From: Gemmatimonadota bacterium
GTDB taxonomy: Bacteria > ARS69
Assembly: GCA_030747075.1 (NCBI GenBank)
Contig: JASLLL010000002.1
Span: forward strand, 101,821 to 165,820
Direction: 5' to 3'
DNA length: 64,000 bases
Under the pieces are notes generated by a model. That model was not told where the DNA came from. It was given only the letters and a program-made list of their open reading frames with translations, and searched no databases. The translations under genes were made by a program, and so were the position numbers. This document shows positions 48,975-58,896 of the stretch, piece by piece (the first letter of the stretch is position 1; each line of letters opens with the position of its first letter).

Positions 48975-49472
48975 CTACTTGGGCGACACCATCGACCAGA
49001 CGCCGCCCTTTTCGACCCATCCGTACCGCGCGACGCCTTCCTCCTTGTGGACGGTGACCTGCGTCGTCTCCAGTGCTTCCCCGTTGTCTTTCATGAAGAT
49101 GTCGAGGTCGTAGATCTTCCCGTTTGTGGCGCGAAAGTCCGCGCAGGCGAAGTAGACATCATCACCGAGAGAGGCCAGCCGCTCCCGGTGGACCTTCACG
49201 AGTTCGAGAGCGAGCGCCTCTTTTGCCTGCGTGTCCCAGACGAGGAAGAAGCCGCCGAGGAGCGCTGACTGCGCGGCGACATACGCTTCGATGGAGTCGC
49301 CCAGTTCCTCCAGAGAGACTTCGCGGGGCGACCCGGGGTGCTCGGGGTGCTCGCCGGGGTGTTCCGGGTGCTCGCCGGGATGCTCGGGGTGCTCGGCAAG
49401 GGCGGGAAGTCCCCAGAGGCTGATCGAGAACAGGCAGGCGGAGAGGAGCAGGATACGCGGCGAGATCTTCAT
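48975..49472 (-). CDS. Small secreted protein with EHPEHPG repeats
   Basis: The 165-residue exported protein has a signal peptide (LLLSACLFSISLWGLPALA) immediately followed by three EHPEHPG heptads, and then a folded region (residues 50-165) with EAYVAAQSALLGGFFLVWDT, GDDVYFACADFRATNGKIYDLDIFM and a strand-rich end. The His/Glu-rich start looks metal-binding. The body is not a family I recognise; its repeats of GKIYDLDIFMKDNG and VTVHKEEGVARYGW resemble small cystatin/NTF2-like fold proteins, without certainty. It converges on queG, and the tandem heptads are encoded by near-identical DNA repeats, so copy number may vary. Confidence 0.65.
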   Translation of the reverse strand: MKISPRILLLSACLFSISLWGLPALAEHPEHPGEHPEHPGEHPEHPGSPREVSLEELGDSIEAYVAAQSALLGGFFLVWDTQAKEALALELVKVHRERLASLGDDVYFACADFRATNGKIYDLDIFMKDNGEALETTQVTVHKEEGVARYGWVEKGGVWSMVSPK

Positions 49473-49659: not shown

Positions 49660-50952
49660 CTACTTCTCCGTGAGAGCGTTCAGCGGCGAGATGCGCCCGT
49701 GCAACACTCCCGATCCCGGGAAGACGGGGTCCGTTGTTCCCGCCACCCGGTGCGCCGCCGTGATCGGCGCAAGCCCCAGTCCCTCAACGAGAATCGCCAC
49801 CGACCCGACCGTTGCGGGAGTGGCCATGGAAGTGCCGCTGGCGGACGCCATGCCCTGCCCGGGATAGCAACTGAGAATACGGACGCCGGGCGCGGCCACA
49901 TGGATCTCCGGCCCCCCGCCCGAGAACTCCGCAAGCGCGTCCACCGAGTCCACCGCGGCGGCACCCAGCGTCATCGGCGAGGTGCCGGGATATGCGGCCG
50001 TTCCCCAGCCTGCGTTTCCGGCTGCGGCCACCACGGGAACCCCGCGAGACACACAGTCCGACAGGATCCGGTCGAACATCTCGACCGGCTCCGAAAGCGA
50101 GAGGCTCAGGTTCACGATGTCGGCCCCCAGCTTCCGCGTGATCTCCATGGCGCGAACGAGGTCCCAGAAGCTGCCCATGCCTTCATCGTTCAGCACCTTG
50201 ATGGGGATGATGGTGATCCCAGGCGCCACCTGAAGCGCGATCCCGGAGACATGCGTCCCGTGCCCGTAGGCTTCGTCCACATATCCGTCTCCGTCGTCGT
50301 CGATCCCGTTCTTCGTTTCCAGAGACCCCATCGTGCTTCCACCGGGAAGAAGCTCCAGGTTCGCCTTGAGAAACCGGTGGTCTGCGTCGACGCCTGTATC
50401 GAGAACCGCGACGCGAACGCCTGCGCCGGTCGCGAGCGCGTGAACCCGCGGCAGCTCCAGTCGGGCGAGCGCGTCTTGGTCTCCCGCAGTGCCGTCATCC
50501 CATTCGCCTTCGTAGAACCCGATGACGAGAGAGGCCCCTTCCAGCAGGTAGACCTCGCGGTTCGTTGCCGCCTCCTCCACTCCCGCATAGTCATCGAGTT
50601 GAGAGATGTCGACCCCCGCAGGGTTGTTGTAGAGCACCGCCACCCCGCCGTCGCACGCCTCCGTGTAGACAATCTCCAGCCCGAACATGTCCACAAGAGC
50701 CTCCGGATCCGCGCCGGGCCGCATCTTGACGACAAACTGCGTACTGTCGGGGACGACCATCTGGGGACTGGTGATTCCCATGGAACCGCCCCCAAGGTCG
50801 CCGCCCCCGCCACCATGAGACCCTCCGGTCGAGCTGCTAATGCGAGAGCGCGCCGGGTCATCGGGTGCGGTAGGGAGGCCTTGGTCCACCCCGCAGCCCG
50901 CCGCAAGCGCGGCGATCCACAGTGCGGCCAGAACTCTGGCGGAATGCTTCAT
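49660..50952 (-). CDS. Subtilisin-family (S8) lipoprotein peptidase
   Basis: The 430-residue lipoprotein has lipobox AALAAGCG, a Gly/His-rich linker (SHGGGGGDLGGGS), a propeptide-like segment (FVVKMRPGADPEALVDMFG), then the catalytic triad: Asp in RVAVLDTGVDADH, His in AYGHGTHVSGIAL, Ser in SGTSMATPATVGS, and the oxyanion Asn in AAAGNAGWG. DDDGDGYVD is a likely calcium loop between Asp and His. The C-terminus has no sorting domain. Copy c of the two-block motif lies about 170 bp upstream and reads toward this gene, so it may belong to the ECF regulon. It is anchored in the envelope and faces the periplasm or the outside. Confidence 0.9.
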   Translation of the reverse strand: MKHSARVLAALWIAALAAGCGVDQGLPTAPDDPARSRISSSTGGSHGGGGGDLGGGSMGITSPQMVVPDSTQFVVKMRPGADPEALVDMFGLEIVYTEACDGGVAVLYNNPAGVDISQLDDYAGVEEAATNREVYLLEGASLVIGFYEGEWDDGTAGDQDALARLELPRVHALATGAGVRVAVLDTGVDADHRFLKANLELLPGGSTMGSLETKNGIDDDGDGYVDEAYGHGTHVSGIALQVAPGITIIPIKVLNDEGMGSFWDLVRAMEITRKLGADIVNLSLSLSEPVEMFDRILSDCVSRGVPVVAAAGNAGWGTAAYPGTSPMTLGAAAVDSVDALAEFSGGGPEIHVAAPGVRILSCYPGQGMASASGTSMATPATVGSVAILVEGLGLAPITAAHRVAGTTDPVFPGSGVLHGRISPLNALTEK

Positions 50953-51368
50953 GATGGCGTCCTCCTCGTTCGCGGTGGGGCATTTCTCCCTGGGGGGAGA
51001 GGACTCGCCGGGGCGACCACCTGAACAGATCTATCGTACCGCAGGAGCAACCCCGACTCACGAGAATACCGGCGCACCGCGCTCCGGGCCCATCGACCCC
51101 GAGGCGCCCGCATCCTCACACAGAAGGGCCACAAGGCCACCTTCTGATACACCCTCTGGTCGCGAAAACCGTGCCGAACGGGCGGAGAGGGAGCAGCGGC
51201 GGGGAAAAACACGCCGAGGGGCCGTGGGAAGCCGGAAATCGGCAGAATCACGGACGAGGAGAAACCGCGGGCGAGGGGGATTCCGGACAGAAATGGACGA
51301 AAAGGGGCAAGTGTGTCCTGAGTCCGACGGCGGGAGCGGCTGGCGTGTGATCCGGCGACCGCCGCGGC
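50953..51368. other. Intergenic region upstream of the subtilase, with motif copy c
   Basis: This region of 416 bp has no credible coding frame. It contains one copy of the two-block motif (51122-51152), whose 5' half also forms a small hairpin (CAGAAGG/CCTTCTG). The remainder shows nothing that I can name. Confidence 0.5.
51122..51152 (-). promoter_or_regulatory. Two-block motif, copy c (upstream of the subtilase)
   Basis: Read on the minus strand: GTGTATCAG, 11 nt, GTGGCCCTTCT. The distance to the subtilase start is about 170 bp. Block spacing (16 nt between TGTATC-type and GCCCTTCT-type cores) is like -35/-10 elements. The match to copies a, b, d and e is the evidence. Confidence 0.6.
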
Positions 51369-54149
51369 CTATCCGGAAACGGCGGCAAAGGGGCCCCAGT
51401 GGAACGGATGCGGCATCGTCGCGCGGACCGCATCCCGGGCCAGAGCGGCGGCTTCCGCGGCGGGGGCACCCCCGACCCACGCGGGGTAGAACGCCGAGGC
51501 GAAAGCTCGCGACGATGCGTCATCCACTTTCCAGAGCGTAAGCACAAGCTCCCGCGCACCCGCCCCGAGCCCGGCGGTGATCCACCCGTCCATGTCGGAT
51601 CCGGGCATGTTCTCGGCAAGGCCGGATTCGCAGCTGGTGAAGTGCAGGAGCGAATCCTGAAGACGGCGTCGGTGAAGCTGCTCGAAGCCGAGCCAGCCGT
51701 CCGCCAGTCGCAGCCCGGAAAAGAGCCATCCCTGTCGGTGGAACACACCGTGCGCGGCGACATGCAGCACACCGAGACGACCGGACCCGTCACCCAGAGA
51801 GTCGCGGCGGCCGGAGACCGTCACATCGAATCCGCTGCGCCGGAGAATCGTGCCAACCTCGCGGACCTCTTTGCGGGTACCCGTTTCTCCACCGCCGAGA
51901 AGGAGCGCGCTCGGGCGAACCTTTCGGCGTCGGCTTCCGAGAAGCGCCGGGTGCGGAAGGCGGGACACACAGGGCGGCCCGTCTCCGTTCGAGACGGGCA
52001 GCGCCTGCACGGGAACGCTGTGCAGATCCCCGTGCGGGACCACGACGACATCTCGGGAAGCAAGCGACAGCGGCGTCCACAGAGCAGACCGCAGTTGCTC
52101 GACGGAACGCGTGCAGTCGTCCAGCGTCCGGTCGAGGAACTCGGCGCGTCGACGAACCGGCGCGTGAGCCGCCGTCTCCAGCGTGATGCGCAGGGGAATC
52201 CAGGTGCCGCGAAGCGCATCCTCGGCATCCGGGAGCGCGACATGCTCCACCCGCCCCCCCGACCGCACGACGAACGCGCGCCAACCGGAGGTGCCGCGAT
52301 CGTAGATCACGAGTTCGCGCCCGTGGAGGAGTCCCTTCCACTGACGGAAGGCCCGTTTCTCCCATGCGCGCCGAACGAGCGCCGGCGGACGAAGCGGCCC
52401 CTCGCCGAGTTCCACTTCCAGACGGGCCATCTCTCCGCGAAGCGCACGGAAGCGGGTGTCCTCGCCGCCGGGCGCCTCGCCTTCGGAGAGGCATTCGTCA
52501 CGAAGCCGGGCAATGGCCGTTCGCGTTTCCGGGCGAAGCTTGCGGGCGTCGCCGTGAAGCAGGTCTTCGATCAGGTTGGGGGAGCGCGCTTTCGCCACGA
52601 GATCTACGGCACGCGCAGCGGCGGAAGGCCCCCCGTGTTCGAGAACGACCTCCACCGCTTCCGCGTAGATGCGATCGCGCGCGCCGCCGGTGAGGATTCG
52701 AAGGCGGCGTGTGCCGAAACGCATGAGCAGCGTCTCGAGATCCTGCACGGAACGGCCCGCCCAGCGAACGGCTTCGCGGGAGCGCCCCAGAGCACCGAGC
52801 GCGCGGGCCGCGACTCCCGCCATGAGCGGCCGCTCCAGTCGGCCCGGGTGGTGGCGTGCGGCGCGGTGAGCTTTCTTCGCGAGAGTTGCGGCGATCCCGG
52901 GTCGGCCCGCGAGAAGATGCGCCTCCGCGGCGACCCCCCGGCAGAGCGCTCCGTCGCCAAGAGGATCTCTTCGGTCGAGGTAGCGCTGGATGCCGCGCAG
53001 GTGATGAAGCGCGCGCTCCGGGTGCCCGCCTTCCAGAAGAACCCGCGCGATCTCCAACTCCGCCCGGCGGCGGGACCACACATTCCCCACTTTCTTCCAG
53101 TAGAGGCGCGCGCGCTCCAGGTGAACCATCGCTTCCTGATGCGTGGCGGTCGTCGCAAGAAGCCGTCCGTGCAGGAACGCGGCCTGCGCGGCTTCCGACT
53201 CCATGCCCAGACCGTCGAACACGGAAAGCGCGGCGGCAGATTCCGGCTGCGCGGCCTCGGGCGCACCGACGGATGCGAAGAGCATCGCCAGTTCCCGATG
53301 GAGCCACGCGACGGCGCGCTCGTCTCCGAGCTTCGCAAAGCGTTGGCGCAGGCGGCCCACCGCTTTCACGCCGATGTCCCAGTTTCCTTCGGCGATGTCC
53401 AGTGCTGCGAGTCCCGTCTCCGCATAGGACTCCAGAAGCTGGACACCCGCCCCGCGGAACTGCTCGCGTGCGCGAAGGAACTCGCGGCGGGCGATGGAGA
53501 CACGCGCGGTCATCATGGCGATGATACCGAGATTGTACGCGCAGACGCCTGCGTCCCATGCGTTCCCGGAGCGGCGGAATATGGCCAGTGCGGCGCGGTA
53601 GCGTTCGGTGGCAAGGTCGTACTTGCCGGTGAAGAGCCACGCGTTCCCGACATTCGACTCCAGCCTGCCGCGAAGCTCCGGCGGCCCTCCGCGAAGATCC
53701 CCCACAGCCCCCCGGGCGACGGCGTGCGCGCGCTTCGGTTCGCCGCGAAGGGCCAGCGCGTGGACCCAGCCGATGGCTGCCTTTCCCGCCTCCAGCCGCT
53801 CCCCCGCCTTTCGGAAGGCAGCGTGCGCGGCGGCATACGCATCGCACGCTTCCGCCACACGACCGACCGCGGACAGCGCGTGCCCTTCCAGGCGCGCGAG
53901 CCGTGCGGCGTCTGCCGGATCCGGGTTGCGCCCTGCGACCCTTCGCATGTGGAGTACCGCATCGAGCGTCTGCGCGGGGTCCAGGCGCAGGTGCCGCAGC
54001 AGCGTGCGGTAGATCCGCTCCCAGGGCGAAAGCTCCGCTTCATCCGCCGGCACGCGCCCACCCTTCGCCCAGCGATCGGGGAGATCCCGATCGGGCGGGA
54101 GGGAAAGCAGGCGCGTGACGGCGCCACGAGTGGAGGGCTTGCGGGTCAC
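51369..54149 (-). CDS. TPR-CHAT caspase-like protease of an ECF sigma operon
   Basis: The cytoplasmic protein of 926 residues starts at a GTG in the stop of the anti-sigma gene (GTGA). Residues about 60-560 are tetratricopeptide-like helical repeats (ESNVGNAWLFTGKYDLATERYRAALAIF, DAGVCAYNLGIIAMMTARVSIAR, LAALDIAEGNWDIGVKAVG). From about residue 640 comes a CHAT domain of the caspase clan: VVVVPHGDLHSVPVQALP, catalytic His in LHVAAHGVFH (about residue 800) and Cys in LHFTSCESGLAENMPG (about 840), ending FHWGPFAAVSG. Both catalytic residues are present. Coupling with the sigma and anti-sigma genes suggests a part in signalling or anti-sigma destruction; that link is inference. Confidence 0.85.
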   Translation of the reverse strand: MTRKPSTRGAVTRLLSLPPDRDLPDRWAKGGRVPADEAELSPWERIYRTLLRHLRLDPAQTLDAVLHMRRVAGRNPDPADAARLARLEGHALSAVGRVAEACDAYAAAHAAFRKAGERLEAGKAAIGWVHALALRGEPKRAHAVARGAVGDLRGGPPELRGRLESNVGNAWLFTGKYDLATERYRAALAIFRRSGNAWDAGVCAYNLGIIAMMTARVSIARREFLRAREQFRGAGVQLLESYAETGLAALDIAEGNWDIGVKAVGRLRQRFAKLGDERAVAWLHRELAMLFASVGAPEAAQPESAAALSVFDGLGMESEAAQAAFLHGRLLATTATHQEAMVHLERARLYWKKVGNVWSRRRAELEIARVLLEGGHPERALHHLRGIQRYLDRRDPLGDGALCRGVAAEAHLLAGRPGIAATLAKKAHRAARHHPGRLERPLMAGVAARALGALGRSREAVRWAGRSVQDLETLLMRFGTRRLRILTGGARDRIYAEAVEVVLEHGGPSAAARAVDLVAKARSPNLIEDLLHGDARKLRPETRTAIARLRDECLSEGEAPGGEDTRFRALRGEMARLEVELGEGPLRPPALVRRAWEKRAFRQWKGLLHGRELVIYDRGTSGWRAFVVRSGGRVEHVALPDAEDALRGTWIPLRITLETAAHAPVRRRAEFLDRTLDDCTRSVEQLRSALWTPLSLASRDVVVVPHGDLHSVPVQALPVSNGDGPPCVSRLPHPALLGSRRRKVRPSALLLGGGETGTRKEVREVGTILRRSGFDVTVSGRRDSLGDGSGRLGVLHVAAHGVFHRQGWLFSGLRLADGWLGFEQLHRRRLQDSLLHFTSCESGLAENMPGSDMDGWITAGLGAGARELVLTLWKVDDASSRAFASAFYPAWVGGAPAAEAAALARDAVRATMPHPFHWGPFAAVSG

Positions 54150-54745
54150 TGCTTCGGATCCTCCAGCGTGAGAGTTTCCCCGTCCGGCAGATGGACCTCC
54201 AGCGTCCAGCCCGACCCCACGGCCTCGTCCAGCACGAAGTCGCCGCCGCTCGGCAGGTCCGCCCGGGCGATCACATGTTCCTGATGAATGAGCGCAATAC
54301 GGACCGCGTCGCCCGGCTTCTCCTTGCGCAGCCAGACCTTTCCCTGGATGCGCCAGCGACCGTCGCCCTTCGGGGGCGTCGCCATGATCCCGACTTCCGC
54401 CTCCGGCACCACCCGCGAGACCATACGAGTCTGCCCGGCGGCCCCCATCCCTCCACCACGAACATCGGCGGGAGCCCACGCAAGCGGGCGTGCGGCGGCG
54501 GTCAGGTCGGGCAGGAGCCTCCCGTCCGGCAGGCGTTCGACGAGTTTTCGCACGCGTTCCGGCGGCGCCACCCACTTCATCGCCTGCTTCGCCCGGAGAA
54601 GAACGCGAAGCGTCCCGACCTCGCGGCGGCAGCGAACGCAGGTGTCGTGGTGCTCCTCCAGTTCGGTTCGGCGGCGGGCCGTCCCCTTGCCCTCCAGCCA
54701 GGCGCGCCAGTCGTCCGGGGCGGGATGGTTGCGTCTTGCGGTCAC
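54146..54745 (-). CDS. Anti-sigma factor with zinc-finger (ZAS) motif
   Basis: The 199-residue partner of the ECF sigma factor has an N-terminal ZAS helix bundle with HHDTCVRC (H-x3-C-x2-C) near residue 33-40. There is no membrane segment, so it is cytoplasmic. The C-terminal half is beta-rich (GRWRIQGKVWLRKEKPGDAVRIALIHQE, GSGWTLEVHLPDGETLTLED) and looks like a small sandwich that could be the sensing part or a CHAT substrate. GTG starts and stops overlap on both sides (GTGA twice), so all three proteins are made at tied rates. Confidence 0.82.
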   Translation of the reverse strand: MTARRNHPAPDDWRAWLEGKGTARRRTELEEHHDTCVRCRREVGTLRVLLRAKQAMKWVAPPERVRKLVERLPDGRLLPDLTAAARPLAWAPADVRGGGMGAAGQTRMVSRVVPEAEVGIMATPPKGDGRWRIQGKVWLRKEKPGDAVRIALIHQEHVIARADLPSGGDFVLDEAVGSGWTLEVHLPDGETLTLEDPKQ

Positions 54746-55305
54746 GATGTCCCCTCCAGGATCTTTCTCATGCGAGCCAGACAGCGGCTTCGAATGGGGC
54801 CGATAGAACCGATGGCAAGGCCGGTCCTCCGCGAGATTTCGTCATACGGGAGCTTGCGCGCGTGCAGGAAGAGAAGCCGCAGGAGCTTCTCGCACTTCCC
54901 GCCCAGTTGTGTGAGGGCGTCCTCCAGCCGAAGGCGGCTCTCCGCGTCCTCGACGACCGTGTCGGGGAGTGCCGCGGGGTCCACCATGTCGGCGGAGATG
55001 TCCGGGAGCATCCGGCGCCTCCGAATGGCGACCTTGTAGGAGAGCCGTCTCGTGGCCACGATGAACCATCGGGGAAGCGCCTCGGCATTGCGAATGCGCG
55101 GAATCGAACGGTGGAGCTCCAGCCATACATCCTGAAACACATCGCCCGCGTCCTCTTCTCCGAGGCCCACTTCCAGGGCCGTCGAGTAGACGAGATTCTG
55201 ATAACGCAGGACCAGTCTCTTCCAGGCGGCCTCGTCGCCTTCGGCGCAAAGTCGGAGAAGCGTCTCATTGCTCTCCTTGTTCTGCGGGGGCGAGCTGTCG
55301 GCCAT
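54742..55305 (-). CDS. ECF-family RNA polymerase sigma factor
   Basis: Sigma-70 family regulator with only regions 2 and 4. The start is MADSSPPQNKES with GAGGAG upstream; a GTG nine codons earlier is less likely. The 187 residues contain region 2 (DEAAWKRLVLRYQNLVYSTAL, EEDAGDVFQDVWLELHRSI, LPRWFIVATRRLSYKVA) and region 4 (LRLLFLHARKLPYDEISRRTGLAIGSIGPIRSRCLARMRKIL). It is followed by its probable anti-sigma factor and the CHAT protease. Copies of the two-block motif lie 158 and about 750 bp upstream, reading toward it, which suggests autoregulation. Confidence 0.92.
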   Translation of the reverse strand: MADSSPPQNKESNETLLRLCAEGDEAAWKRLVLRYQNLVYSTALEVGLGEEDAGDVFQDVWLELHRSIPRIRNAEALPRWFIVATRRLSYKVAIRRRRMLPDISADMVDPAALPDTVVEDAESRLRLEDALTQLGGKCEKLLRLLFLHARKLPYDEISRRTGLAIGSIGPIRSRCLARMRKILEGTS

Positions 55306-55462
55306 CCTCTCCTCGGGGATCCACGGGAGCACAAGAGTCTCAGGGAATCCTAGCGGATCGGATGATTCCTGGCAAAGACGCCGGGCGCCTGCCCCGAGAG
55401 GCGAGTGCCCGGCCGCAACAGGTCATCCCCGCCGCGCCGGCCCACTTGGGTCTCTCCCGGCA

Positions 55463-55494
55463 AGAAGGGCGCGGGAGCCGCGCTCCTGATACAC
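55463..55494 (-). promoter_or_regulatory. Two-block motif, copy b (upstream of the sigma gene)
   Basis: On the minus strand: GTGTATCAG, 12 nt, CGCGCCCTTCT. It lies 158 bp upstream of the sigma start and is the best candidate for an autoregulatory promoter. Confidence 0.6.
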
Positions 55495-55502
55495 CGAAGG
55501 TT

Positions 55503-55875
55503 GTGTTCTGAAGAGGTTGTTTTTCTCCGCCCCCCCCTTCAGGTTCTGTCCATTGGGGTAACTTCCGTTTGGGCTAGAGGTTAGCAGACATGGCCGTGGC
55601 TGGCTCCGCGTGGAATCGGACGAAAGAGAGCCGGGGTGGGGAGTATTCGGGCAGATTGGGGACCGATGTCGCCGCCGATCCTCCGGCCGGTCCTCTCCCC
55701 GGGAGGGAGCGGTCAGGAGGCGTCTGACGCACGGAAGGCCCGCGCCCGGGGTTGCGAGAGCTCAATTCATTGGGTCGTCGTGAGATGCGCCGCCAAAGAG
55801 CCGAACCGTTGCCTCGAGGATCATGTCGGCCCCGGCAACCTGGACCCTACTTCTTCAACAACCTCTTCAGAACAC
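55503..55875. repeat. Perfect 19-bp inverted repeats flanking 335 bp
   Basis: The left arm 55503-55521 reads GTGTTCTGAAGAGGTTGTT; the right arm 55857-55875 is its exact reverse complement. The interior has no credible gene and no target-site duplication is visible at the outer ends. It may be a MITE-like non-autonomous element or a large non-coding RNA stem. Confidence 0.6.
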
Positions 55876-56053
55876 CGTCCAATGAGTGCGGGAGGGGAAC
55901 CAAGGTCTAGTGCCCCCCAGACCAGGCCCCCTCCCGGGTTTGCGTGCCTTGCGGCACAGCCGGATCCGGTTTCCGGCCGGCCATCGGAAGCCCGACGACC
56001 CGGTTCCTCCCCGTCCCCCTTGAGAGAGAGGCGCTCCATTGCCGAATCCGCCT

Positions 56054-56084
56054 AGAAGGGCGCGCTGATTCCGCCCTGATACAC
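56054..56084 (-). promoter_or_regulatory. Two-block motif, copy a (no close gene)
   Basis: On the minus strand: GTGTATCAG, 11 nt, CGCGCCCTTCT, identical in both blocks to copy b. Reading leftwards, the next gene is the sigma factor about 750 bp away, so any transcript would first cover the inverted repeat region. Confidence 0.55.
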
Positions 56085-56223
56085 GCAATGGGGAGATTTT
56101 TGCGGATTTTGCGAAGAATGTCGGCCCGCCCTGTGATCCGGGTGTCGACCGCGCAAGACCGGCCGCCCCCCGAAGGAGACGGCCGTATCCCGTCCATGCG
56201 CAAGTCTCAACACGCAGTGCCGG

Positions 56224-56850
56224 TCAGCAACCGTCGCTGCAGGCCGCGAGGGGGGTGGGGGTTCCGTTATTCCCCTCGTTCGTCTCATCAACGGTATTCA
56301 GCGGGTCCACGATCGCGTTGAAGAAGACCGGCCTCGCAGCAGAGGGCACGCAGTCGCACGGACCCATGTACCATGGGCGTGTAATGACCACTGACGCGCC
56401 TGGAGGAATCGCGGTGCCGATCAGCTGGTTCCACGAATCCCAGTTCCACGGGCCACCGGAGGATGATCCGGATCCCCACCGGATGTGCGTGATGTTCGCG
56501 GGAACAAACCCGGGACCGAGATTGGTCACGGTGACGGACAGGGTGAAGAACCGGTTGCCGCCGATGCAGCCGACATTCGGGAGAACCCCGCCGCACGAAG
56601 TTGTCATCGGGAAGCCCGGATCAAAAGTGATGTTCGAGAGCACAAGGTCCGGCTTCAGTTTGAACGGACCAATGGGCGTACCCACCGGAACGGGGATCGG
56701 CGGAGTGAGCGAGGGGCCGCCGGGCGCCTCCGGCGCCAACGGTGAGGCGGCATCGTCCAGTTCGCCGCACCCGGGCAGAAACGCAACAGCGATCCCCAGA
56801 ACGAGCAGGGCGGAAAGTGTCCGGCAAGTGGCAAGAAAGATGCGGGGCAT
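56224..56850 (-). CDS. Secreted lipoprotein with CARDB-like domain
   Basis: The 208-residue lipoprotein (ALLVLGIAVAFLPGCGELDD) has a Pro-rich linker, then a CARDB-like beta-sandwich: KPDLVLSNITFDPGFPM, FFTLSVTVTNLGPGFVP, and the end VDPLNTVDETNEGNNG. Several cysteines (TSCGGVLPNVGCIGG, GPCDCVPS, ACSDGC) suggest disulfides. This is an adhesion or scaffold-type surface module with no enzyme motif. Motif copies d and e lie 69-146 bp upstream and point toward it, so it is a likely regulon member. Confidence 0.72.
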   Translation of the reverse strand: MPRIFLATCRTLSALLVLGIAVAFLPGCGELDDAASPLAPEAPGGPSLTPPIPVPVGTPIGPFKLKPDLVLSNITFDPGFPMTTSCGGVLPNVGCIGGNRFFTLSVTVTNLGPGFVPANITHIRWGSGSSSGGPWNWDSWNQLIGTAIPPGASVVITRPWYMGPCDCVPSAARPVFFNAIVDPLNTVDETNEGNNGTPTPLAACSDGC

Positions 56851-56918
56851 GGTTCATGTCCTCCGGTAAGGGCGAAGGCAGGGATGTGGCGAAGTCGTTC
56901 TCCCTGCCCGGTCGCTGA

Positions 56919-56949
56919 AGAAGGGCCGCCAACAGGTTTGCTGATACAG
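56919..56949 (-). promoter_or_regulatory. Two-block motif, copy d (upstream of the CARDB lipoprotein)
   Basis: On the minus strand: CTGTATCAG, 11 nt, GCGGCCCTTCT. It starts 69 bp upstream of the CARDB-like lipoprotein gene. The same two blocks and spacing as the other copies. Confidence 0.58.
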
Positions 56950-56965
56950 CGAAAACTCCCGCACT

Positions 56966-56996
56966 CAACGGGCCGCCCGCACTCTTCTTGATACAC
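56966..56996 (-). promoter_or_regulatory. Two-block motif, copy e (divergent promoter region)
   Basis: On the minus strand: GTGTATCAA, 11 nt, GCGGCCCGTTG. It is the second, more diverged copy in front of the CARDB-like gene. Its GTGTATCA block pairs as a palindrome with that of copy f. Confidence 0.5.
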
Positions 56997-57006
56997 ACAA
57001 TGTTTC

Positions 57007-57037
57007 GTGTATCACGCACGGGAAGCCACGCCCCTCT
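57007..57037 (+). promoter_or_regulatory. Two-block motif, copy f, facing right (upstream of lipoprotein 57124)
   Basis: On the plus strand: GTGTATCAC, 11 nt, CACGCCCCTCT. The first block is good and the second is partly conserved (7 of 11 positions by eye). It is the only copy on the plus strand, and the only following gene on that strand is the lipoprotein starting 87 bp downstream. Confidence 0.45.
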
Positions 57038-57123: not shown

Positions 57124-57645
57124 ATGAGACGCACTTCGAAAGGACTGCTTGCACTGCTGGCACTGGTCGTCACCGGCGCGATGGCCGGGTGCCTGGGGAC
57201 GAGCGATGACAGCGGCGACTACGGAAACCTGCTGACACAACCCGCACTCTTCGACAACGACGAGATTCTCGGGGCGTCCGGCATCGGCGTCGGACCGGTG
57301 ACGCCGGGACAGCAGGTATCTCCGGTACCGCGGTACCGTGGACACAGCGTCCCTCTCGGTCCGCCAAGTGGCGGTTTCCGGGGAGACGAAGACTACGAGT
57401 ATGATCCCACCAACCCGCCGCGCGAACTCGACTTTCATGTGGCTTCCGGGGCGTCCAAGTCGTACCGCTGGCGCGGATCTCACAAGCGCACCGGCGCCAA
57501 GAAGAGTACATACATGGACACGGAGATCGGCACGAAGTCTCGCCACGAGCACATCACTTCGAGCGAAGCGGGACACTATTCTCTCTTCAAGCCGTACAAC
57601 ACAAGCCACATCGTGGAAGGGAACTTCGCGTCGCTGTACGAGTAG
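57124..57645 (+). CDS. Hypothetical lipoprotein
   Basis: The 173-residue product begins with a lipoprotein signal (GLLALLALVVTGAMAGCLG) and a Gly/Pro-rich stretch, then a more structured end with RYRGHSVPLGPPSGGF, DYEYDPTNPPRELDFHVASGASKSYRWRG and IGTKSRHEHITSSEAGHYSLF. No family is recognised. The C-terminal HEH and HYSLFKPYN may be metal- or ligand-binding. The start is preceded by a G-run (GGGGGGACC). Motif copy f lies upstream. A cell-envelope role is likely from the signal only. Confidence 0.65.
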   Translation: MRRTSKGLLALLALVVTGAMAGCLGTSDDSGDYGNLLTQPALFDNDEILGASGIGVGPVTPGQQVSPVPRYRGHSVPLGPPSGGFRGDEDYEYDPTNPPRELDFHVASGASKSYRWRGSHKRTGAKKSTYMDTEIGTKSRHEHITSSEAGHYSLFKPYNTSHIVEGNFASLYE

Positions 57646-57762: not shown

Positions 57763-58896
57763 ATGAAGACGCACACTTCGCAGAAGCTCATCACCCGGAT
57801 CCCGGCGTGTCTCGTCGTTCTGCTCGTCCTTTCCGGGACCGCCGCATCCGCACCCGCGACCCCGCATGTCGTCGTCGGCGCACGCGATCTCCGCACCAAC
57901 GATTCGTACATTGCCGGGCTGTATACGAACCTGGACCTGGAGAACCCGAAGGAAGTGTTTGGATATGTCTTCGAACAACTGTCGGAAGAGGTCATGGTCT
58001 ACCCGTCGGAAGGCTACTTCTACTTTGAGTTCCCGTCGCGCGGGCTGACCGTGTCCGGCTGCATCACCTTCTATGTCCGCGATCGCGCGGAAGGGAAACT
58101 GGGCTTCGGCTATGTCGGCCGCATGGCAGGCACGGGGCCTGAGCCACCGTCGTTCCCGATCGGAGAATCGCACGACTTCACAAAGGCCGACGGAATGGAG
58201 ATGAAGGCGGAGACCGAGTTCCTCTACCGCGTACGGTACGAGGGCCGGACCGTCCGCTTCCGTCTCTATGACCCGGGGATGGACCCGCCCGTGAAGGCGA
58301 AACTCCGCGAAGACGAGATCTTTGTGGGACCGACATTCGACGAGTCAGGTCTGCGGTTCCATCTCGTCTTCAACGAGACCATGCAGCGGCTCTTCTGGGT
58401 GCTGAACGAAGACGGGTTCGTACCCGAAGTCATGACGGTTCATTCAGAACATGTCGCGCTGGGACAGAGAACCGGCTTCGCCTTCTATCTGGACGCCGAG
58501 AACCACCGGAAGATCCTCGTCGGAGTGCAGGGCGACAATGTCCGGCACAACAACTGGCACGATGGACCGTTCGATCAGCTTCCCGACTCTTATGTGAAGA
58601 CCGGGGAGACGGAAATCGAACCGTATCTGCGCGCGCACTACCATCTGGATCCCGGCGAAATCGACCGGTACGGGAACTACACGACCATCCCCGGCTCACG
58701 CGTTCCCGTGGCGCCGTACCGGGCGTACTACGACACGGCGGAACTGAGCTTCGTGGAGGAAGCGGTCACCGAAGGTCTCAAAGGCCCGGAACTCTACGCC
58801 CGCATCACGAAACAGGTGTACAACCGCCGTCCGGAGGCCCCCGGGGAAGCGGCTGGACACACGGTGGTTGCGTCCTTCGTCCAAGCCACAGAATAG
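57763..58896 (+). CDS. Hypothetical secreted protein
   Basis: The 377-residue protein has a signal peptide (PACLVVLLVLSGTAASA) and no lipobox. The body contains HVVVGARDLRTNDSYIAG, NPKEVFGYVFEQLSEEVMVYPSEGYFYFEFPSRG, LRFHLVFNETMQRLFWVLNED and GFAFYLDAENHRKILVGVQGDN, with no recognised catalytic motif. The end is rich in Tyr, His and charged residues. The ribosome binding site is GGGAGGG. It is the second plus-strand gene after the lipoprotein at 57124 and may share its transcript. Confidence 0.65.
   Translation: MKTHTSQKLITRIPACLVVLLVLSGTAASAPATPHVVVGARDLRTNDSYIAGLYTNLDLENPKEVFGYVFEQLSEEVMVYPSEGYFYFEFPSRGLTVSGCITFYVRDRAEGKLGFGYVGRMAGTGPEPPSFPIGESHDFTKADGMEMKAETEFLYRVRYEGRTVRFRLYDPGMDPPVKAKLREDEIFVGPTFDESGLRFHLVFNETMQRLFWVLNEDGFVPEVMTVHSEHVALGQRTGFAFYLDAENHRKILVGVQGDNVRHNNWHDGPFDQLPDSYVKTGETEIEPYLRAHYHLDPGEIDRYGNYTTIPGSRVPVAPYRAYYDTAELSFVEEAVTEGLKGPELYARITKQVYNRRPEAPGEAAGHTVVASFVQATE

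What the first reader, a model, noticed from the sequence alone, without database searches (positions are those of the whole stretch)
51122..57037. A two-block promoter-like motif repeated six times around an ECF sigma gene
The motif reads GTGTATCAG-N11/12-GYGSCCCTTCT. Copies: c 51122-51152, b 55463-55494, a 56054-56084, d 56919-56949 and e 56966-56996 on the minus strand, and a weaker f 57007-57037 on the plus strand. Block sequence and spacing hold while spacer and flanks differ, as in a promoter or operator and not a copied repeat. Four minus-strand copies point into the genes they would serve: c to the S8 lipoprotein, b to the sigma gene itself, d and e to the CARDB lipoprotein. Copy f faces the lipoprotein at 57124. 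Copy a has no close target. I saw no further copy elsewhere in the window. Inference: this is the promoter recognised by the local ECF sigma factor, defining an envelope regulon.
Basis: partly seen in the sequence, partly recalled or inferred. Interest (0 to 1): 0.82.

Follow-up and report, generated by a model that had tools for sequence, protein, structure and literature searches.

The report
Self-switching promoter of a protease-coupled sigma factor
A two-part DNA signal that occurs six times at one spot of this bacterial genome is likely the on-switch read by a neighbouring ECF sigma factor, and because the same signal stands before the same kinds of genes (the sigma factor itself, a subtilisin-type protease and lipoprotein-like genes) in other bacteria, it predicts a small cell-surface response that would be released by a caspase-like protease.

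Summary
The six copies are real, sit where stated, and are the only strong ones in the 2.67 Mb genome. The stated consensus is too strict (only copy c fits it exactly); the shared core is TGTATCA-N15/16-GCCC.

A matrix trained on the six window sites finds the motif before orthologous sigma genes, S8 proteases, a CARDB homolog and the 57124/57763 pair in other genomes. Around 11 sigma genes of three genomes not used to shape the matrix, all 8 matches of score 14 or more in 197 kb precede such genes or lipoprotein/secreted genes. Failures are told too: 12 of 19 orthologous sigma genes outside this genome score below 16.

The sigma gene heads an overlapping operon: ECF sigma, putative soluble zinc-finger anti-sigma, TPR-CHAT (caspase-like) protease. 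Sigma with CHAT and subtilase genes recurs in many phyla (54 of 80 loci) and resembles published group ECF54. The promoter lacks the canonical AAC/CGT boxes. Predicted loop: CHAT removes the anti-sigma, sigma amplifies its own operon and makes envelope proteins. Transcription and cleavage are untested. New variant of a known kind.

The parts
51122..51152 (-). motif copy c, predicted promoter of the S8 protease gene
   Evidence: exact consensus; found by genome scans; 169 nt before start
55463..55494 (-). motif copy b (spacer 16), predicted autoregulatory promoter of the sigma/anti-sigma/CHAT operon
   Evidence: counterpart upstream of the orthologous sigma gene in G001, G061 (2), G070 (4)
56054..56084 (-). 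motif copy a, no obvious target; about 0.75 kb upstream of the sigma gene, shares a 17-nt stretch with b at 88%
56919..56949 (-). motif copy d, predicted proximal promoter of the CARDB lipoprotein-like gene
   Evidence: homologous gene in G070 (L263) has a copy 5' of it
56966..56996 (-). motif copy e (block 2 GCCCGTTG), predicted distal promoter of the CARDB gene
57007..57037 (+). motif copy f, predicted promoter of the 57124/57763 gene pair
   Evidence: homologous pairs in G062 (score 22.5) and G001 (11.3) have a copy at the same place
54742..55305 (-). ECF sigma factor gene (187 aa, ATG after AGGAGAGG)
   Evidence: Sigma70_r2 32.2 bits, cutoff 24 (with a start 9 codons earlier); TIGR02937 68 bits, cutoff 42.9
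54146..54745 (-). putative soluble anti-sigma: H32-x3-C36-x2-C39 zinc-finger segment plus C-terminal beta-sandwich, no membrane helix; overlaps the sigma stop by 4 nt
   Evidence: zf-HC2 16.6 bits, below cutoff 22.2; model of 4 helices and 8 strands, pLDDT 72.5; only PDB profile hit RsiW, E 0.018; hydropathy maximum 0.65
51369..54149 (-). TPR-CHAT protease with His800/Cys840 dyad motifs; overlaps the anti-sigma stop by 4 nt
   Evidence: CHAT 87.5 bits, cutoff 24; TPR_12 30.4 bits, cutoff 30.1; motifs
49660..50952 (-). S8 subtilisin-like protease, lipoprotein-like N-terminus (by eye), catalytic DTG/HGTH/GTSMA
   Evidence: Peptidase_S8 110 bits, cutoff 21.8; motifs
56224..56850 (-). CARDB-domain lipoprotein-like protein
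   Evidence: CARDB 20.8 bits, just below cutoff 22.7
57124..57645 (+). small lipoprotein-like gene
   Evidence: no family; homologs in G001 and beside the 57763 homolog in G062
57763..58896 (+). conserved secreted-looking protein of unknown function, behind 57124
   Evidence: homologs in G001, G060, G062 at 46-52% identity, none in G061 and G063
55347..55375 (-). sigma-70-like promoter TTGCCA-N17-TAGGAT just upstream of the sigma gene (predicted basal promoter)
   Evidence: similar TTGGTC-N18-TAGGAT read by eye in G001 (sequence)

Best explanation
The six copies of TGTATCA-N15/16-GCCC are likely the promoters of one small regulon, each read by the ECF sigma factor encoded at 54742-55305, which would thereby switch on its own operon, the neighbouring S8 protease and the lipoprotein-like genes upstream. 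Block 1 would be the -35 element (contacted by sigma region 4) and block 2 the -10 element (region 2). Shown by sequence: the motif, its restriction to this locus in this genome, its orientation, and its recurrence before the same gene classes in other genomes. Inferred: that the sigma factor binds it. Predicted working: a weak sigma-70-like promoter (55347-55375) keeps the operon on at a low level; the zinc-finger protein (54146-54745), soluble by sequence, holds sigma inactive; the TPR-CHAT protease, on an unknown intracellular signal perhaps sensed through its TPR repeats, cleaves or otherwise removes that inhibitor; free sigma then fires copy b (positive feedback, including more anti-sigma) and copies c to f, so that a subtilisin-like protease and lipoprotein-like proteins are made. 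The confidence given is for the promoter/sigma assignment; the CHAT-removes-anti-sigma step alone I put at about 0.35.
For: Restricted to the locus in its genome. A matrix trained on the six window sites (score 16 or more in 1 of 2000 random 400-mers) scores 16.4 before the sigma ortholog of G001, 17.2 and 18.8 before both sigma genes of G061, 16.6 and 19.6 before the S8 genes beside them, 22.5 before the 57124/57763 pair of G062 and 22.4 before an S8 gene of G063. In G061 the 3 exact genome-wide matches of TGYATCA-N15-GCCCYTCY are all at its two sigma loci. Six-site profile over nine other genomes: 4 hits up to E 10, namely a sigma promoter (G061), the 57124/57763 pair (G062), and sites 161 and 63 nt before a lipoprotein-like and a secreted-looking gene (G060, G002). 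Unseen test: upstream of 11 further subfamily sigma genes of G070-G072, 4 of 11 score 16 or more; 8 matches of 14 or more in the 197,009 bases around them (about 1.8 expected) precede sigma (4), S8 (1), a CARDB homolog (1), lipoprotein/secreted genes (2). Sites vary with the sigma paralog: both sites at G061:C96 read TGCATCA, both at G061:C6 TGTATCA. Controls: 0 of 9 more distant sigma genes and 0 of 11 more distant S8 genes reach 16.
Against: No transcription start, binding or expression data. Of 19 orthologous sigma genes outside this genome 12 score below 16 (5 of 8, one of them with only 165 bases upstream; 7 of 11), so autoregulation by this motif is not universal, or the boxes have drifted (TGTATCC/T variants at G062:C18, 12.5 at G070:C26). 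Copy a has no target. Distances to start codons of 157 and 169 nt (b, c) are long. The spacer penalties of the matrix were set after G001 and G061-G063 had been looked at, and the threshold of 14 was chosen; at 16 the same scan has 4 hits, all before sigma. With 2 mismatches allowed, the pattern is no more frequent in G060-G063 than its reversed control. The profile hits outside this genome have E 1.2 to 5.1 only, and G002's best sigma match has 35% identity, outside the subfamily. Anti-sigma function rests on a sub-threshold zf-HC2 match, and five relatives of the protein lack the zinc-finger segment.
Confidence: 0.86

Rival explanations
1. The motif is an operator for an activator or repressor, not the sigma factor's promoter: a DNA-binding protein coded elsewhere binds both half-sites and controls the locus.
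For: Two conserved blocks with a nearly fixed spacer also fit a bipartite operator; the sigma gene has a separate sigma-70-like promoter; long distances for b and c.
Against: The blocks are neither direct nor inverted repeats of one another; they point at their genes (5 of 6 in the window, 8 of 8); 16 chosen sites outside this genome lie in genomes with the sigma subfamily, and variants follow the sigma paralog within G061. No other regulator gene was seen to travel with the cassette, though this was not searched systematically.
Confidence: 0.1
2. The copies are a dispersed repeat or a product of local duplication with no regulatory role.
For: Copies a and b share a 17-nt stretch that reaches into the downstream flank at 88%; all copies lie within 6 kb.
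Against: Spacers otherwise differ, only the boxes are conserved; independent genomes carry the boxes before the same gene classes.
Confidence: 0.02
3. The promoter assignment is right, but the cassette is controlled without any anti-sigma: the CHAT and subtilase proteins act on the sigma factor directly, as reviewed for ECF54.
For: PMC8999054 (section 3.3 read) states that proteolytic control without an anti-sigma factor has been proposed for ECF54 because of carboxypeptidase, subtilase and CHAT neighbours; five relatives of the middle protein lack the zinc finger.
Against: The middle gene has a ZAS-like H-x3-C-x2-C segment here and zf-HC2 above cutoff (36.3 bits, cutoff 22.2) in relative L149; its profile's only PDB hit is the anti-sigma RsiW, E 0.018.
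Confidence: 0.3

Closest known systems
ECF sigma factor group ECF54 (as described in PMC8999054; the classification paper itself is not held)
   Same: sigma gene with TPR-CHAT and subtilase genes beside it; relatives of the middle gene give weak CarboxypepD_reg matches (L086, L099), which would explain the published 'carboxypeptidase' neighbour
   Different: here a putative soluble zinc-finger anti-sigma lies between sigma and CHAT, whereas the review describes control without anti-sigma; no promoter or regulon is given in the section read; membership by the group's own model could not be tested
Craspase / CASP system (Cas7-11, TPR-CHAT Csx29, Csx30, CASP-sigma; PMC10028731, passages and section 8 read)
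   Same: a TPR-CHAT protease coupled to an ECF sigma factor through an inhibitor protein, with motif matches in promoters of its own locus
   Different: no Cas protein among the seven module proteins by PADLOC; the middle protein is 199 aa with a zinc-finger segment; a subtilisin and lipoprotein-like genes as targets instead of cas1; trigger unknown
Canonical autoregulated ECF promoters (AAC at -35, CGT at -10; PMC8103513, passages read)
   Same: two boxes with nearly fixed spacing, upstream of the sigma operon, positive feedback expected
   Different: boxes read TGTATCA and GCCCYT; neither AAC nor CGT is conserved
Soluble ZAS anti-sigma factors (e.g. RsrA, ChrR; names from recall, RsrA also a sub-threshold NCBIfam match)
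   Same: H-x3-C-x2-C segment, no membrane helix, gene directly behind sigma
   Different: C-terminal beta-sandwich of unknown role (no PDB fold hit at E 0.001 or below); zinc finger missing in five relatives

Membership tests
ECF (group IV) sigma factor | sigma region 2 and sigma region 4, nothing else | tested here: met
   Sigma70_r2 above cutoff, Sigma70_r4 below (12.9, cutoff 24.1); TIGR02937 sigma70-ECF over residues 27-183 at 68 bits, cutoff 42.9; subfamily profile finds sigma-E, sigma-H and SigW structures
[quoted passage not shown]
   22 hand-compiled sites: TGTATCA and GCCCYT; definition from PMC8103513
Canonical ECF regulon (early definition) | motif before the sigma gene itself (positive autoregulation) | tested here: met
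   copy b; 7 of 19 orthologous sigma genes outside this genome at score 16 or more; activity not measured
Canonical ECF regulon (early definition) | cognate anti-sigma co-transcribed with sigma | tested here: inconclusive
   4-nt overlap with a gene carrying a ZAS-like segment, zf-HC2 below cutoff
ECF54 | CHAT and subtilase genes in the neighbourhood | tested here: met
   window; both present in 54 of 80 loci of the wider family
ECF54 | carboxypeptidase-type domain in the neighbourhood | tested here: inconclusive
   CarboxypepD_reg weakly in L086 (22 bits) and L099 (17.8), cutoff 32.3, in 2 of 8 middle proteins scanned and not in the window's own
ECF54 | no anti-sigma factor | tested here: inconclusive
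   a putative anti-sigma is present here and zf-HC2 is above cutoff in L149
ECF54 | match to the ECF54 group model | not testable with these tools
   no ECF-group library on hand
Craspase (type III-E CRISPR) | Cas7-11 and Csx30 with TPR-CHAT Csx29 | tested here: not met
   seven module proteins against PADLOC: no Cas or Csx match; the rest of the genome was not searched for Cas7-11
CHAT protease | CHAT domain with His-Cys dyad | tested here: met
   PF12770 87.5 bits; AAHG with H800 and SCES with C840; activity not tested

The most novel reading that the evidence does not exclude
A widespread, CRISPR-independent signalling cassette in which a caspase-like TPR-CHAT protease destroys a soluble zinc-finger anti-sigma factor to free an ECF sigma factor with its own promoter code (TGTATCA/GCCCYT), which then builds a surface protease and lipoprotein programme and amplifies itself: the stand-alone system of which Craspase would be the CRISPR-wired version.
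Probability: 0.33. Interest if true: 0.8.

Novelty: new variant of a known kind. Interest (0 to 1): 0.6.

Why it matters
It gives one branch of a sigma-CHAT-subtilase cassette, which is found in many phyla and has no promoter in the literature seen here, a concrete promoter sequence and a short list of conserved targets, so that its trigger and output can be tested in a two-plasmid reporter. It also points to a candidate anti-sigma as the possible substrate of a TPR-CHAT protease outside CRISPR, and adds an ECF promoter class without AAC/CGT boxes.

Tried and rejected
Strict consensus scan: only copy c. First named-genome scan with the single sigma protein: nothing; the alignment of 41 subfamily members worked. 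Wider family: the window matrix scores 11 or more upstream of only 2 of 80 sigma loci (L080 17.2, L123 13.2), so the promoter belongs to the subfamily, not to the whole cassette family. G060: no copy upstream of its two sigma genes (one has only 165 bases upstream) or its 57763 homolog. G062's own two sigma loci score 4.3 and 8.1. Matches with at most one mismatch that lead nowhere: three of four in G062 and three in G061 (C2, C4, C37) lie inside long reading frames; the two of G060 lie inside a frame and 9 nt before a hydroxymethylbilane-synthase-like gene (named by eye); one of two in G063 precedes a LysR-like gene (by eye). Three of G061 (C84, C99, C112) were not looked at. G008's single hit has no gene of 100 codons or more within 260 nt behind it; G002, G003 and G004 had none, and that pattern had been widened after G001 was seen. 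Foldseek of the putative anti-sigma model: no hit at E 0.001 or below. Rfam: only a sub-threshold L31 leader. PADLOC: no defence system beyond generic subtilase and weak BovA/IetS matches. Literature: searches listed nothing that gave a promoter or regulon for this cassette in the passages read; the ECF classification paper is not held.


Full report
WHAT IS THERE. Six copies of a two-block sequence lie between 51122 and 57037. Letters shared by all six are TGTATCA, GCCC and one later T; the spacer is 15, in copy b 16. TGYATCA-N15/16-GCCC occurs six times in the window against a mean of 0.13 in 100 Markov simulations. In the whole genome (2.67 Mb, 61 contigs) the fixed-spacing pattern with up to one mismatch occurs four times, all here, and at two mismatches seven times, none here; GTGTATCA-N13-18-CCYTYCT occurs three times, all here; and a sequence-only profile of the six copies finds those six and nothing else up to E 10 (150 of 1201 first-look candidates scored).

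THE GENES. Copy b lies 157 nt before an ECF sigma gene (Sigma70_r2; TIGR02937). Behind it, with 4-nt overlaps, come a 199-aa protein with an H-x3-C-x2-C segment and a C-terminal beta-sandwich, without membrane helix, and a 926-aa TPR-CHAT protease with His800 and Cys840 motifs. Copy c stands before an S8 protease, d and e before a CARDB protein, f before a gene pair (57124 and 57763). The label lipoprotein-like is by eye (hydrophobic start, then a Gly-Cys step); a strict lipobox pattern matched none of these proteins. A sigma-70-like promoter, TTGCCA-N17-TAGGAT, lies between copy b and the sigma gene.

CROSS-GENOME TEST. The sigma factor belongs to a clear subfamily: in the protein search the first 73 listed (own included) have 48% identity or more, the next ones 34-41% save one fragment. 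Orthologs were found in G001 (same family), G060 (2), G061 (2), G062 (2), G063 (1) and, in the phylum of G061, in 3 of the other 79 genomes searched: G070 (8), G071 (2), G072 (1). I trained a matrix on the six window sites only. Score 16 or more occurs in 1 of 2000 random 400-mers and about once per Mb. In G001 and G060-G063 the upstream regions of 3 of 8 subfamily sigma genes, 1 of 3 loci of the 57124/57763 type (a second at 11.3) and 3 of 19 S8 genes (all three among the 8 closest; another at 12.5) reach 16; 0 of 9 more distant sigma genes do. The spacer penalties were set after these genomes had been seen, so G070-G072 are the cleaner test: 4 of 11 sigma genes reach 16. In the 197,009 bases around these 11 genes all 8 matches of 14 or more, on either strand, stand before sigma (4), S8 (1), a CARDB homolog (36.6% identity) or lipoprotein/secreted genes (2); about 1.8 were expected by chance. 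The threshold of 14 was chosen; at 16 there are 4, all before sigma. Every target class of the window is thus met again elsewhere with the motif.

OUT-OF-LOCUS HITS. In G062 one of four matches with at most one mismatch, and the only profile hit, is upstream of homologs of the 57124/57763 pair, away from the sigma genes. In G063 one of two such matches is directly upstream of an S8 gene. In G061 the three exact matches are at its two sigma loci; of eight one-mismatch matches one is a sigma promoter (C6), one stands 32 nt before a lipoprotein-like gene (C45), three lie in long frames and three were not looked at. The other profile hits, G060:C580 (E 1.9) and G002:C109 (E 5.1), stand 161 and 63 nt before a lipoprotein-like and a secreted-looking gene; G002's best sigma match has 35% identity, outside the subfamily, so at least that one may be chance. 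In G061 the two sigma loci use different box variants, TGCATCA and TGTATCA, each twice, as expected if each sigma reads its own promoters.

RESULTS AGAINST. Twelve of 19 orthologous sigma genes outside this genome score below 16; G060's two sigma loci show nothing; G062's have at best TGTATCC/T variants; G063's sigma has none; copy a has no target. At two mismatches the pattern is no commoner than its reversed control. The motif is not general in the wider family: 2 of 80 loci at 11 or more.

THE CASSETTE. In 54 of 80 named loci (32-58% sigma identity; by record title Planctomycetota, Chloroflexi, Acidobacteria, Actinobacteria, Proteobacteria, Armatimonadetes and others) both a CHAT and an S8 gene lie on the fetched stretch around the sigma gene; some of the rest are cut contigs. 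The middle gene of relatives has a zinc finger above cutoff in L149, weak ones in L122 and L080, and weak CarboxypepD_reg matches in L086 and L099 (8 proteins scanned); five relatives (L081, L189, L214, L197, P0123) lack the zinc-finger segment. A profile of the middle protein has one PDB hit, the anti-sigma RsiW, at E 0.018; its model is moderate (pLDDT 72.5) and without a confident fold match.

HOW IT LIKELY WORKS. Basal expression from the sigma-70-like promoter; sigma held by the middle protein; on an unknown signal the CHAT protease removes it (inferred by analogy with Csx29/Csx30, PMC10028731, passages and section 8 read); sigma fires copy b and the effector promoters. The promoter step is well supported by sequence, the cleavage step is a hypothesis (about 0.35).

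KNOWN OR NEW. PMC8999054 (passages and section 3.3 read) describes group ECF54 with carboxypeptidase, subtilase and CHAT neighbours and reports a proposal of proteolytic control without anti-sigma. The present cassette fits that neighbourhood; the group model could not be run and the classification paper is not held. New here, as far as the searches go: a promoter sequence without AAC/CGT, a conserved target list, and a candidate anti-sigma.

Noticed in passing
window 55503-55521 and 55857-55875: A perfect 19-nt inverted repeat, arms 335 nt apart, lies between copies b and a; the two arms are the only matches in the genome at up to 2 mismatches.
   Followed up: partly
G070 (L255-L257, L259, L260, L262, L263, L265): One genome of about 5.8 Mb holds eight members of this sigma subfamily, seven of them with anti-sigma-like, CHAT and S8 genes on the fetched stretch: an expanded set of parallel circuits.
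   Followed up: partly
L081, L189, L214, L197 (middle gene), P0123: The anti-sigma-like protein lacks the zinc-finger segment but keeps the beta-sandwich part.
   Followed up: partly
window 48975-49472 (-): Secreted-looking protein with tandem HPEHPGE repeats near its N-terminus, no Pfam match.
   Followed up: no
L190 3095-3416: CRISPR-like regularly spaced repeats (seen by eye in the translations) near a one-mismatch motif copy and a lipoprotein-like gene in G061.
   Followed up: no
window 55960-56007 (+): Sub-threshold Rfam match to an L31 ribosomal protein leader (30.4 bits, gathering 35).
   Followed up: no
L123, upstream of sigma: A motif-like site starting GTGTATCA (score 13.2) before a distant actinobacterial sigma of the same cassette family; could be chance among 80 regions.
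   Followed up: no
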